Shown one piece after another: positions 6,943 to 49,149 of a stretch of 64,000 bases of DNA. Every line of letters begins with the position of its first letter. Within the stretch, counting starts at the first letter, position 1. This DNA is from Leptolyngbya sp. FACHB-261 (GTDB lineage: Bacteria > Cyanobacteriota > Cyanobacteriia > FACHB-261). Location: positions 558,001 through 622,000 of the forward strand of contig NZ_JACJPL010000027.1 in assembly GCF_014696065.1 (NCBI RefSeq), written 5' to 3'. The translations under genes were made by a program, and so were the position numbers. The notes beneath the pieces are model-generated. The model did not search any database, was not told the DNA's origin, and saw only the letters and a list, made by a program, of their open reading frames with translations.

Positions 6943-7509
6943 CTACCGCCAGAAACGCTGTGCTAGGTAAAAGCTGGTGATCGTCTTAGCGTCAAAGGGT
7001 TCACCGGCCAGGATTGCCGCTTCCATTTCTTCAGGCGTAAATAACTCAACCACCAAGTCTTCGTCTTCATCTTGAGCGGGCGGCTTCTCTAAAAGCTCTA
7101 AATCCAGAGCCGCAAACGCATAAATAATCTCATCCGAGTAACCAGGCGCCAGGTAAAACTGCCCTAATGTTTCCCAGCGATGAGCCCGATAACCAGTTTC
7201 TTCTTCAATTTCGCGCCGCACTGTCGCCGCCGGATCCTCTCCAGGCTCTATCGTTCCTGCCGGAAACTCTAGCAGTCGGCCTTTAACTGTAAAACGATAC
7301 TGGCGTACACATACCAGCTTGCCCTCGTTAGTTAGGGGTACTGCTAAGGCCCCACCAGGATGGGGAATCCATTCCCAATCGCCCTCAACCCCATTAGGTA
7401 AACGCAGTCGATCAACCCGGTAACCGTACTTGCGACCCTGATATTGAAGACGATTGTGCAGAAGCTGATAGGGCTCACTACCTGGTAAGCCTGGTTGGTC
7501 CGGTTGCAT
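6943..7509 (-). CDS. Nudix hydrolase, ADP-ribose pyrophosphatase type
   Basis: A 188-residue Nudix enzyme with a complete Nudix box: G, five residues, E, seven residues, then REIEEETGY (about residues 95-117). The upstream block LVCVRQYRFTVKGRLLEFPAG is typical of the ADP-ribose pyrophosphatase (NudF-like) subgroup, which cleaves ADP-ribose to AMP and ribose 5-phosphate. Substrate is inferred from the subgroup. It lies about 90 bases upstream of mfd on the same strand. Confidence 0.88.
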   Translation of the reverse strand: MQPDQPGLPGSEPYQLLHNRLQYQGRKYGYRVDRLRLPNGVEGDWEWIPHPGGALAVPLTNEGKLVCVRQYRFTVKGRLLEFPAGTIEPGEDPAATVRREIEEETGYRAHRWETLGQFYLAPGYSDEIIYAFAALDLELLEKPPAQDEDEDLVVELFTPEEMEAAILAGEPFDAKTITSFYLAQRFWR

Positions 7510-7722
7510 TCTGGCTTTCCTAATGTCTAGGCAAAAAATATTGAGGCAAGAAGTGCCCAGGCAAAAAGCCGCAGTCTAGGCCACAATCTAAGGGCGCAAT
7601 TAGAGACAAAATCAAGGCCAAAAATCAAGATAAGTACAACAGAGGCAAGCCTGGCGGTTCTAGCCTCTGAGCATATCGCTACCAGCATAGAAGCACACCA
7701 GGCTTGAGCAAGGCTTTAACCT

Positions 7723-45851: not shown

Positions 45852-46376
45852 ATGCCAAGTAGTAATGAATATCGTCGTCAGGTTATGAATGACCTGGCGG
45901 GTGGTGATGTCGAGCAGTTGCCCGACAACCACGCTTCAGCTCCGGCTGAGAACTACGACAACTTTGATGATTTCGCTAACCGTTCTAGCCGCGAAGAGCG
46001 CCGGGGCTTGTTTGGTCGCTCTTTCCATCCCGACCGCATTCCTTCCGCTCAAATGGAGCCAGAACTCCAGCAAGCGATTAGCCGCATTCAGCCAAATCAG
46101 CGGGATGATGTTGCCCGTGATTTCCTGAAGCACTTTAAGCAACGCGGTCTCTCTGAAAAGGACATTGAGAGACAACTGGGTCTGTCAACCCACCACGCCA
46201 GCCACATGAGTGCTGATGATGTGAGCAAGTTGGCTGCCTTTGCTTATCGCTCTCACCCCGATATTTTCCAGGATGTTCTGGCCGACCAGCCTTTCCTGGT
46301 GAAGTTCCTGAGCAACCCCATGGTGGGTGCTGCGTTGGGTGCGATTGCTGCTAAGTGGATGGGCGGTCGTCGCTAG
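45852..46376 (+). CDS. Unknown conserved-looking protein with terminal hydrophobic helix
   Basis: A 174-residue protein: an acidic disordered N-terminal third (NYDNFDDFANRSSREERRGL), a helical domain (DDVARDFLKHFKQRGLSEKD, HMSADDVSKLAAFAYRSHPD) and a Gly/Ala-rich hydrophobic end (NPMVGAALGAIAAKWMGG) that could insert in or lie on a membrane. AGGAG precedes the ATG by 10 bases. No named family. The stress-type neighbours (CsbD, lipoprotein) are the only hint of a role. Confidence 0.65.
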   Translation: MPSSNEYRRQVMNDLAGGDVEQLPDNHASAPAENYDNFDDFANRSSREERRGLFGRSFHPDRIPSAQMEPELQQAISRIQPNQRDDVARDFLKHFKQRGLSEKDIERQLGLSTHHASHMSADDVSKLAAFAYRSHPDIFQDVLADQPFLVKFLSNPMVGAALGAIAAKWMGGRR

Positions 46377-46488
46377 GCCCCTAACCCCCAAGTTTGGGGG
46401 AGTGGAAGTCTGGTTACGTTCTAAGTCTGCTTGAGAGTCTCGTTTTGAGGCTCCGCCGCTCGAATCTAAGGCTATAGATTAGAGACCT

Positions 46489-46512
46489 CGAAGACCGCTT
46501 AGGCGGTCTTCG
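46489..46512. terminator. Terminator hairpin
   Basis: A perfect 10-bp stem CGAAGACCGC / GCGGTCTTCG with a TTAG loop, followed by a T-rich tail; it separates convergent genes. Confidence 0.8.
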
Positions 46513-46564
46513 TTGTTGTGTGGCCTTTTTGGTTTGGCAAGTTCGGGGGGAGCAAGATGCAGAG

Positions 46565-46909
46565 CTAATGGAAGTTTTGCACGGCTTGCAGCAGGGTAGC
46601 GGAAAGACTGTAGAGCACTATGGTGGGGCCACCGCCTTCTGGATGAACAATGACTCTACTCACTAAGTTGCGACCTTCGAGGCTGAGCAATAACAAGCTG
46701 AGTTCTGAGGTTTCGAGGTTGCTGTCGCGGCTGAGCAAGGTGAGGGGAACGCGGGAGCAGCCACCGTTGGGTTCGATGTAGTTAGCAATTACCAGCAGAA
46801 TCAGTTTGAGTTGGGCCGGGAGTTTGAGGCGACGGACGATGTGGTCCCACAGAGCGAGACGAGCTTGGGAGGACATGGCGTTTGCATCGTGAGAACTGAG
46901 CTGAGACAA
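46565..46909 (-). CDS. Winged-helix protein (HTH_36, Rep-like), next to an iteron-like array
   Basis: A 114-residue protein. LPAQLKLILLVIANYIEPNG, RVPLTLLSRDSNLETSELSL and LLLSLEGRNLVSRVIV fit the HTH_36 winged helix found in phage and plasmid replication initiators (helix, turn, recognition helix, wing). An internal ATG at residue 12 is an alternative start. It lies 23 bases from a dozen 20-bp repeats, the usual setting of a protein that binds its own repeats. Replication function is inference. Confidence 0.65.
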   Translation of the reverse strand: MSQLSSHDANAMSSQARLALWDHIVRRLKLPAQLKLILLVIANYIEPNGGCSRVPLTLLSRDSNLETSELSLLLLSLEGRNLVSRVIVHPEGGGPTIVLYSLSATLLQAVQNFH

Positions 46910-46931
46910 GGGCTATAAGTTTTCCAAATCA

Positions 46932-47222
46932 GACAAACGAAACTTTGCTTAGAATTAGCAAAACTTGCTTAGAATTAGCGAACTTTCGGTCACGATTAAC
47001 AAACGTTGGCTGCCAGTAGACAAACTTTGCTCCGAACGATTGATTTTTCTAATCTGAGTAGCAAATTTTGCTTGGAATTAGCGAAGTTTGCTTAGAATTA
47101 GCGAACTTTTGGTCTTGAGTAGCGAAGTTTCGGTCTTGAGTAGCAAAATTTCGCTACCAGCAGGCAAATTTCAATCAAGACGATTGACTTTTCCAGAGCG
47201 AACAACGAAATTTTGCATTAGC
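46932..47222. repeat. Iteron-like array, about 12 units of 19-22 bp
   Basis: Units share an imperfect palindrome close to GCRAARTTYGC, for example TTAGCGAAGTTTGCTTAGAA (47078), TTAGCAAAACTTGCTTAGAA (46955), TAGCGAAGTTTCGGTCTTGA (47120) and TAGCAAAATTTCGCTACCAG (47141). Unit starts: 46932, 46955, 46975, 46996, 47017, 47059, 47078, 47098, 47120, 47141, 47161 and 47199. Two similar spacers starting CGATTGA (47037 and 47181) interrupt the array. Phasing near 21 bp places the palindromes on one face of the helix. Confidence 0.85.
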
Positions 47223-47265
47223 GGATGAGTCTTTCCCAGCCAGGACCGGAATTTTGGTTCTGCGT

Positions 47266-47622
47266 TCAGGCGGTTGATTGCTGCGGTTGAAGCTCTCGGT
47301 AGCGCCGTTGCCAGAGATGCCGCCAGTAGACTAGGACGTCTTCGGGATAAGCAAAGCGCTGAACCTCGCTTTTAATCACGTGTCCCAGCCATTCAAGCAA
47401 GCGTAAATCGGTGCAACTGAGGATGGTGCGGGCGCAAGCTTCGCTCCAAGCAGCGAATTTTCGATAGCTGATGAACTGACCACCCTGATCGGTGCGATGG
47501 ACGAACAAGACGTGCATCCAGTGTTCGATGCGGCAGATGCGCGATTTGGGAATGCCCAAGAAACGGGCGACTTGAAGTAGGGAAATGCAAAGCTGCGGCT
47601 GCAACACCTGGGTAAGGTGCAT
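47266..47622 (-). CDS. Small HTH-like protein, unknown
   Basis: A 118-residue protein beginning MHLTQVLQPQLCISLLQVAR, with a MerR/excisionase-like helix-turn-helix (FLGIPKSRICRIEHWMHVLF) and a basic helical end (YWRHLWQRRYRELQPQ). ATG 47622 has GGAG 9 bases upstream. It lies on the far side of the iteron-like array from the winged-helix gene, in the same direction, so the array may be its 3' flank and the promoter region of the other gene. No named family. Confidence 0.55.
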   Translation of the reverse strand: MHLTQVLQPQLCISLLQVARFLGIPKSRICRIEHWMHVLFVHRTDQGGQFISYRKFAAWSEACARTILSCTDLRLLEWLGHVIKSEVQRFAYPEDVLVYWRHLWQRRYRELQPQQSTA

Positions 47623-47698
47623 GGAAAGGACTCCAAAAGTTTGAGGGCAATGGGATCCTGTGACCCTATTTAGGGCCAAGGAAGGCAAGTGCTAAACT

Positions 47699-47782
47699 GC
47701 CCCCTAGCCGCCAGGTTGCGCATAACAACCTGGCGGTTAGTTCCCCAGAGTTTATCTAAGACTCTGGGGGACGCCTAGGGGT
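47699..47782 (-). ncRNA. Structured leader, predicted three-way junction
   Basis: Three perfect or near-perfect helices nest: an outer stem CCCCTAG (47701-47707) with CTAGGGG (about 47775-47781); hairpin 1 with 11 bp CCGCCAGGTTG / CAACCTGGCGG (47708-47736); and hairpin 2 with 9 bp CCCCAGAGT / ACTCTGGGG (47743-47769). It lies 77 bases upstream of the HTH gene at 47622 and reads as its 5' leader; a tandem-terminator role is the alternative. Confidence 0.5.
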
Positions 47783-48029
47783 CCAGTCGCTTAATTAGGA
47801 ACCCTATCAGGGCTGAAGTGCAGAGTCAAGGGGTCAGCGGAAAATTCTCTGCTGGGCCAGCTTGTATCGTTGCAAACACAGGACTGTGAGGAGCAAAACT
47901 TAGTTTCAACCGCACTTCGTTCCATTGAATTTCTTCCTACCCAGTAGGAAAAATGGCAGCTATGCTGGGATGAATACCTCAGCTCGGCTTGAGATCTGGA
48001 AGGAGACTTGTTCATCAGTGTGTTGAACT
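47783..48029. other. Gap without a supported gene
   Basis: About 250 bases. The reading frame on the minus strand at 47791-48015 shows no protein-like pattern. It is here that a divergent integrase gene would be expected if the repeats to the right are attI, and none is present. Confidence 0.5.
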
Positions 48030-48190
48030 TGAAAATATGCGGAAAGATTCTGCCTATTTGGCTGAATCGGCGTACTATGCGGTAAAGATTCTACTTATCT
48101 ACCTGGTTTGGGGTGTTATACGGAAATTATCCACCTAATCACGACTATGAGGGTGTTATACGGAAACTTTCAGTCTAATAATAGTTATGC
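48030..48190 (+). other. Repeat region, possible attI site or attI relic
   Basis: Four repeats with core TATRCGG(T)AAA start at 48036, 48076, 48117 and 48157, spaced 40-41 bp. The last two share GGGTGTTATACGGAAA. The region ends in GTCTAATAATAGTTATGC (48173-48190), which resembles the core of attI sites (CTAAAACAAAGTTAG type) and whose GTTATGC is the exact complement of the R'' box closing the first cassette (49189). A transposon end is an alternative reading. Confidence 0.45.
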
Positions 48191-48306
48191 CGCTTAGTCC
48201 TTGGTGGAGACGTTACCTGAAGCTTGTCTGTTTGTTGCGCTACTGGCTTTATGAGGGTTGGAGGAAACGCAATCTCTCCGGATACCAGCATCCAAATAGA
48301 GAATAG
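48187..48306 (+). CDS. Candidate micro-ORF whose ATG is in the R box
   Basis: A 39-codon frame starts inside the GTTATGC core and encodes a basic, Trp-rich peptide (MPLSPWWRRYLKLVCLLRYW then LYEGWRKRNLSGYQHPNRE). It has no ribosome binding site. The composition suggests membrane association. It could be chance. Confidence 0.25.
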   Translation: MPLSPWWRRYLKLVCLLRYWLYEGWRKRNLSGYQHPNRE

Positions 48307-48357
48307 TAATATGCTTTCAATCCCTGATAAATCAACGTTGTCGAGGTAAAAACTAGA

Positions 48358-49149
48358 ATGGGGCTTTTATTGCCAGAACAGAAAGCAGCATATAATTACG
48401 AAGCTATAAGAAAGCGACTTGCTGCACAAGCTCAGGAATATTTTGAACCTCAATTAGCAGAATTGGGGTTTTCTAAAAGCCAAATAGAGACACAATCATT
48501 GGATGAGCTTAGGCAAAGTTTAGAGTCAATTAATGAAGCTATAAAACACCCTGGTTCCTTTGGTTCTTTAAGCTTCAGTGTGGGAGCCGAAGGAAAGATT
48601 TTTGTCACAAGCTCCAAATCAAATGCTCAGTTTGAAATAGGTATATTACCTTTACTTCTCGATAGGAAAAAACTCATTTTAGAGAAGATTAGAATACTCT
48701 CTTCAAATGAGAAAATTGAAACGATACAAGACCTAATCAATCGAGTTAATAATGAGGAAATCAAGAAAAAACTTGAAAAAGAAGTTAATGAGCTTAGAGA
48801 TGAAGCTCAACGCTTAAGAGAACAGTCTAAAGAGGTTGAGCAAGAGCAGAATCAGGAGCGAGTAAAATCACAAGCAGATCTTGCCAAACTAAATATAGAG
48901 CTTTTTGAGAGGAGATCAAAAGTTTGGTTTACTCTTCTAGAACGGGAATCAGCAGCGACTATTTTAGGAGGAATTCTATTATTTATTATCCTAATAGCCC
49001 ATGTGACTGCTATCTTTACTAAATTCTCAATCCCGGAGATTTTAAACAATGCCTTTCTGATAATATTAGGTTACTTTTTCGGTCAGTCTACAAACGAAAA
49101 AGGAGCAACAAGATCAGATAGAACCACTGTAGAAGATGAGGGAACCTAA
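48358..49149 (+). CDS. Cassette 1: coiled-coil protein with two C-terminal membrane helices, unknown
   Basis: A 263-residue protein. A helical N-terminal half (YEAIRKRLAAQAQEYFEPQL) leads to a small beta region (SLSFSVGAEGKIFVTSSKSN), then a long Glu/Lys/Gln coiled coil (about 120-190, EIKKKLEKEVNELRDEAQRL) and two closely spaced membrane helices (AATILGGILLFIILIAHVTA and NAFLIILGYFFG). The soluble part is most likely cytosolic. Codon use is AT-rich compared with the flanking core genes. It is framed by R boxes at 48184 and 49189, so it is a gene cassette. No family is recognised. Confidence 0.7.
   Translation: MGLLLPEQKAAYNYEAIRKRLAAQAQEYFEPQLAELGFSKSQIETQSLDELRQSLESINEAIKHPGSFGSLSFSVGAEGKIFVTSSKSNAQFEIGILPLLLDRKKLILEKIRILSSNEKIETIQDLINRVNNEEIKKKLEKEVNELRDEAQRLREQSKEVEQEQNQERVKSQADLAKLNIELFERRSKVWFTLLERESAATILGGILLFIILIAHVTAIFTKFSIPEILNNAFLIILGYFFGQSTNEKGATRSDRTTVEDEGT

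What the first reader, a model, noticed from the sequence alone, without database searches (positions are those of the whole stretch)
46565..47622. Iteron-like array between two HTH genes: possible replicon relic or new regulatory locus
About 12 units of 19-22 bp with a shared imperfect palindrome close to GCRAARTTYGC sit directly upstream of a winged-helix gene of the replication-initiator type. Two copies of a spacer starting CGATTGA interrupt them. Iterons beside a Rep-like wHTH are the layout of plasmid origins, yet this is in chromosomal context. It borders the integron region, so the two may have arrived together.
Basis: partly seen in the sequence, partly recalled or inferred. Interest (0 to 1): 0.75.

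Follow-up and report, generated by a model that had tools for sequence, protein, structure and literature searches.

The report
RNA-led multicopy small-protein loci
The repeat array is real but is not a plasmid origin: it belongs to one of about 75 loci of similar plan in this cyanobacterial genome, each headed by a previously undescribed folded RNA and nearly all followed by a small, often DNA-binding, protein gene, and the same RNA heads related genes in other cyanobacteria.

Summary
The 20-21 bp array (46935-47225) is real (0 of 2000 dinucleotide shuffles reach its periodicity). It is not a replicon relic: its two genes have about 46-48 paralogues each in this genome, are under purifying selection, and have no relative among 72,556 plasmid records. 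Its two main stems covary strongly (271 double-changed cells against 107 in shuffles, 0/500). The genome holds about 75 copies, nearly all followed by a small-protein gene of one of at least five families (two HTH-like). It matches no Rfam family. The RNA also occurs in 11 of 386 other cyanobacteria and in Symploca, mostly ahead of a ~80-aa family or of the 118-aa family; 28 of 34 of those copies are followed at once by a terminator-like hairpin (attenuator layout). 21-bp arrays cluster at the RNA loci (141/Mb against 5/Mb background), but each group of loci has its own unrelated repeat, independent of the adjoining protein, so they are not iterons read by either HTH protein. The mechanism (an RNA leader controlling small regulators) is inferred.

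The parts
47824..47829 (-). -35 promoter hexamer TTGACT, conserved across RNA loci
   Evidence: read in sequence; TTGAC/TTGC conserved in alignment of 27 loci
47801..47806 (-). -10-like hexamer TAGGGT, 17 nt from the -35
   Evidence: read in sequence; TAnnnT-like at the same place in most sister loci
47684..47793 (-). structured RNA (model R1; core 47680-47774 in model R2)
   Evidence: 121 bits with R1; 93 bits with R2; covariation
47740..47772 (-). RNA stem-loop P2 (12 pairs)
   Evidence: 11 of 12 pairs with changes on both sides over 61 copies
47708..47736 (-). RNA stem-loop P3 (11 pairs)
   Evidence: 10 of 11 pairs with changes on both sides over 61 copies
47269..47622 (-). gene B, 118 aa: HTH, three-strand wing, C-terminal helices; about 48 paralogous ORFs in the genome
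   Evidence: dN/dS 0.04-0.20 in the named close pairs; AF2 mean pLDDT 92
46935..47225 (+). array of 20-21 bp repeats with two CGATTGA-type spacers
   Evidence: shared with the L006 and L007 copies
46568..46876 (-). gene A, 103 aa winged-helix protein; about 46 paralogous ORFs in the genome

Best explanation
The locus is one member of a family of about 75 dispersed chromosomal units in this cyanobacterium. Each unit is a promoter, a ~100-nt folded RNA at the predicted 5' end of the transcript, and one or two small-protein genes (families A, B, C, D or E). Shown by sequence: the RNA, its fold by covariation, its copy number, its place ahead of the genes, selection on A and B, and its presence ahead of related genes in other cyanobacteria. 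Inferred: the RNA is a cis-acting leader that sets expression of the small gene, by attenuation where a terminator-like hairpin follows (most copies in other genomes) and by translation or mRNA stability where the U-tract is missing (this genome). Also inferred: A and B are small DNA-binding regulators. The 21-bp array is an accessory, fast-turning-over repeat tract beside such units, not a sequence-specific target of A or B; its two-helical-turn period would fit a structural or one-face protein-binding role, which is unproven.
For: RNA covariation: 19 pairs with double changes in 27 copies and 21 in 61 copies, 0/500 shuffles and far above slid controls. 73-75 copies in the genome. Most lie upstream of A/B genes, and those without A/B precede families C, D or E. 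RNA in 11 of 386 other genomes and at 9 Symploca B loci, mostly ahead of E or B, once RNA-E-B. Terminator-like hairpin with T-run right after the RNA in 28 of 34 copies from other genomes against 2 of 340 shuffles. Purifying selection. Array enrichment near RNA 141/Mb against 5/Mb. Array families do not follow protein families.
Against: In this genome only 2 of 61 copies have a T-run after a hairpin, so attenuation is not shown here. No ligand, protein-binding or expression data. The outer helix P1 pairs well mainly in one clade. The RNA could instead be a separate small RNA. The array's role rests on exclusion and position.
Confidence: 0.6

Rival explanations
1. Plasmid or integrated-replicon origin relic: the array is a set of iterons bound by a Rep-like winged-helix protein (A).
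For: Iteron-like period next to a wHTH gene; weak HTH_36 similarity of some relatives.
Against: About 47 chromosomal copies; no plasmid relative of A or B and no phage relative of A; unrelated arrays beside near-identical proteins; the protein consists of the wHTH alone; no recurring partner genes.
Confidence: 0.03
2. Orthogonal autoregulation: each small HTH protein binds its own locus-specific array, and the array sequence has diverged to avoid cross-talk between paralogues.
For: Arrays sit beside DNA-binding-type genes and differ between loci; A changes faster than B.
Against: A proteins of L114 and L116 are 97% identical yet their arrays are unrelated; B proteins of L073 and L076 are over 90% identical yet arrays are unrelated. 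One array family is shared by A loci (L114, L117) and C loci (L258, L259).
Confidence: 0.12
3. The RNA is a free-standing small RNA ending at the following terminator hairpin; the small ORF is a separate or read-through gene.
For: Terminator-like hairpin at a constant distance after the RNA in most copies of other genomes; the RNA is shared by several unrelated ORF families.
Against: The ORF begins only tens to about 200 nt later in most loci; in this genome the U-tract is mostly absent, so transcripts should run on. No search for a second promoter before the ORF was made.
Confidence: 0.22
4. The units are non-autonomous mobile elements (about 1-1.8 kb) spread by a transposase or recombinase acting in trans, and the folded sequence acts as DNA.
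For: Dispersed copies in unrelated contexts with homology limited to about 1-1.8 kb.
Against: No common end sequence was seen in the upstream flanks of 14 loci (not an exhaustive test); promoter, fold and ORF start are kept in register; genes under purifying selection.
Confidence: 0.15

Closest known systems
Cis-regulatory leader RNAs (riboswitches, protein-binding leaders, attenuators)
   Same: Covarying fold at the predicted 5' end of the transcript, promoter directly upstream, terminator-like hairpin then ORF in other genomes
   Different: No Rfam match; about 75 copies in one genome; precedes several unrelated small-protein families of unknown function; U-tract mostly absent in this genome
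Iteron plasmid origins (Rep plus iterons)
   Same: 20-21 bp tandem units next to a winged-helix gene
   Different: Chromosomal and multicopy, no Rep, units unrelated between near-identical paralogues
Partition loci of the TubR/tubC or ParR/parC type
   Same: Small winged-helix or HTH protein and tandem repeats
   Different: No NTPase or any other gene family recurs beside the loci; arrays do not follow the protein
Type III toxin-antitoxin loci (ToxIN)
   Same: Tandem-repeat tract near a small gene
   Different: No toxin family match for A or B; arrays detected at only part of the loci; the folded RNA is single-copy per locus

Membership tests
Cis-regulatory leader RNA (attenuator type) | Conserved secondary structure supported by covariation | tested here: met
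Cis-regulatory leader RNA (attenuator type) | Located ahead of an ORF, behind a promoter | tested here: met
   position and promoter-like hexamers; the transcript itself was not measured
Cis-regulatory leader RNA (attenuator type) | Terminator hairpin plus U-tract between RNA and ORF | tested here: inconclusive
   28/34 copies in other genomes, 2/61 in own genome
Cis-regulatory leader RNA (attenuator type) | Response to a ligand, protein or condition | not testable with these tools
   needs expression or binding assays
Any Rfam family | Covariance-model match | tested here: not met
   no match up to E=5 in window 46300-48400; none at gathering score in seven sister loci
Iteron plasmid replicon | Rep initiator gene beside iterons | tested here: not met
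   103-aa wHTH only; no Rep match in Pfam, NCBIfam or PHROGs; weak HTH_36 in 8/43 relatives
Iteron plasmid replicon | Iterons conserved as targets of the initiator | tested here: not met
   unrelated arrays beside 97% identical A proteins
Iteron plasmid replicon | Relatives on plasmids | tested here: not met
Iteron plasmid replicon | DnaA boxes and unwinding element | not tested
TubR/ParR partition locus | Motor NTPase gene in the same locus | tested here: not met
   no recurring neighbour family apart from A and B

The most novel reading that the evidence does not exclude
A previously unknown RNA-headed class of multicopy genetic unit in cyanobacteria: one RNA fold used by at least five unrelated small-protein families, spread to about 75 loci in a genome and accompanied by locus-specific 21-bp repeat tracts, acting as a genome-wide network of RNA-controlled small regulators.
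Probability: 0.35. Interest if true: 0.9.

Novelty: new variant of a known kind. Interest (0 to 1): 0.72.

Why it matters
An apparently undescribed structured RNA with about 75 copies in one genome, ahead of several small-protein families, would be an unusually amplified leader RNA and gives an entry point to cyanobacterial small proteins with no assigned function. The strength of the covariation makes the RNA directly testable by probing and reporters. It also warns that iteron-looking arrays beside wHTH genes need a paralogue check before they are called replicons.

Tried and rejected
Replicon relic: rejected. Array as coding heptad repeats: no codon-position signal in any array tested. Array as palindromic operators: no general dyad excess. 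Known RNA family: no Rfam match. Viral origin: no confirmed relative of B in viral contigs. B fold by Foldseek: no PDB or viral match below E=0.001. Element ends: upstream alignment of 14 loci showed decaying homology without a common end. Literature searches on iterons, RNA motifs and minisatellites in cyanobacteria gave no description among the titles listed; the library lacks most subscription papers.

Full report
OBSERVATION. The window region holds two minus-strand ORFs with a repeat tract between them. Repeat periodicity at 21 and 41 bp is far above dinucleotide shuffles (0/2000 each). GCRAARTTYGC-like words are in excess here (6 against 0.55), but unit consensuses of the arrays show no general dyad excess. 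Better starts give gene A = 46568-46876 (103 aa) and gene B = 47269-47622 (118 aa).

THE LOCUS IS MULTICOPY. The array DNA matches two other places in the genome at 88-90%, with homology over about 1.25 kb in different surroundings. Gene B has 47 matches and gene A 46 in the genome; among 95 same-class genomes gene B has one marginal match. Profile searches of the fetched stretches give 47 A and 48 B ORFs (a few stretches overlap), mostly paired B then A on one strand. The named close pairs have dN/dS of about 0-0.25, with two more distant A pairs at 0.39 and 0.44, so the proteins are maintained. No other gene family recurs at a fixed place beside the loci. B relatives exist in Symploca (many copies per genome), Microcoleus, Coleofasciculus, Moorena and others, with no detected A gene in the stretches held. 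No confirmed relative of B occurs in viral contigs or on plasmids, and none of A on plasmids or in phages.

THE RNA. The 5' flank of B is strongly conserved. Aligning 27 loci shows TTGACT, a 17-nt gap and a TAnnnT-like hexamer and, directly downstream, a folded RNA with stem-loops P2 and P3. On 27 copies, 19 pairs have changes on both sides; the covariation score is 0.314 against 0.191 in shuffles and at most 0.139 in slid versions. A mutual-information ranking made without a given structure puts P2 and P3 pairs at the top. On 61 copies 271 cells are double-changed against 107 in shuffles and at most 77 in slid versions; 84% of cells pair. Shuffles do not remove relatedness, but the slid controls keep it. 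A 3' segment AGTTTANCAC is strongly conserved and forms a further hairpin in many copies but hardly in the window's clade; the outer helix P1 pairs well mainly in that clade. Rfam has no match.

COPY NUMBER AND PARTNERS. Models R1 and R2 find 73 and 75 copies in the genome. Most lie at A/B loci (the weakest rows there are partial or antisense matches). Seventeen copies had no A or B hit and were read separately. Other small ORFs follow at 65-200 nt: family C (73 aa) at nine, family D (63-72 aa) at five, family E at one (L257). One (L253) is a shortened RNA lying about 2.8 kb from a B gene, and one (L252) has no clear partner. None of the proteins reaches a Pfam cut-off.

OTHER GENOMES. R2 finds the RNA in 11 of 386 other cyanobacterial genomes, with up to nine matches each, and upstream of B in nine Symploca loci, roughly 0.1-0.9 kb away. 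The following ORF is mostly E or B; L175 has RNA, E and B in a row. E occurs in 32 of 386 genomes (own included), often in many copies; C is essentially confined to this genome among 146 searched. Right after the RNA, 28 of 34 copies from other genomes have a GC-rich hairpin with a T-run, against 2 of 340 mononucleotide shuffles; in the home genome only 2 of 61 do, although similar hairpins without the T-run are visible. Many of the 34 are close relatives of each other, so 28 is not a count of independent events. This is the layout of an attenuator, or of a small RNA with its own terminator.

THE ARRAYS. Different loci carry unrelated 21/42-bp arrays. Arrays pass the detection threshold at 26 of 71 RNA copies, 141 per Mb against 5 per Mb in 400 kb of background chosen away from RNA copies; the window's own, more degraded array falls below that threshold. 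They lie between B and A in clade 1 and upstream of the RNA in most others. Array families do not follow the proteins: A of L114 and L116 is 97% identical but the arrays are unrelated; L114/L117 (A) and L258/L259 (C) share one array family; L076 and L084 share one although their proteins are clearly diverged. Arrays show no coding signal. Similar arrays, again locus-specific, occur near 6 of 34 RNA copies in other genomes, but near only 4 of 101 B genes there. Further 21-bp arrays lie in other multicopy segments without A, B or a detected RNA.

PROTEINS. AlphaFold2 gives B mean pLDDT 92 (HTH, three-strand wing, C-terminal helices) and A mean pLDDT 90 (winged helix). A resembles MarR, TFE and RPC62 winged helices; B has no significant structural match.

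CONCLUSION. The array is a real but secondary feature of an RNA-headed, multicopy small-protein unit. The replicon reading fails. That the RNA is a leader controlling the small gene is the best-supported mechanism, inferred from position, covariation and the terminator layout in relatives; no expression evidence was available. Whether the array is functional DNA or a tolerated minisatellite at these loci remains open.

Noticed in passing
L072:171-419, L073:1829-2096, L077:14318-14558, L080:1945-2084; L085:12264-12395, L102:14018-14157: Other 21-bp arrays embedded in further multicopy segments of about 600-770 bp without A, B or a detected RNA copy; possibly additional unit families.
   Followed up: partly
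window 47926-48189; L007:1400-1791 and 7261-7703; L079 upstream flank: A repeated stretch with several TAGGCAGAATCTTTCC-like units lies upstream of the RNA; in L007 it occurs as a direct repeat flanking about 5.5 kb of small genes.
   Followed up: partly
L308-L325 (mostly family f32 genomes): E genes there seem to lack the RNA; several share a promoter like TTGACAAGTATAAA..TATACTT and a GCGATCGC hairpin, and others have what looks like a divergent HTH gene upstream.
   Followed up: no
L253 (G000:C20:56179-56256): A 78-nt RNA copy that has lost stem P3 entirely, about 2.8 kb upstream of a B gene.
   Followed up: no
L284 (G031): An RNA copy followed at +369 by an ABC transporter ATPase gene instead of E.
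   Followed up: no
window 47269-47622: Part of the B model resembles T4 UvsW.1 (2jpn, TM 0.65 by target, E 1.6, not significant).
   Followed up: no
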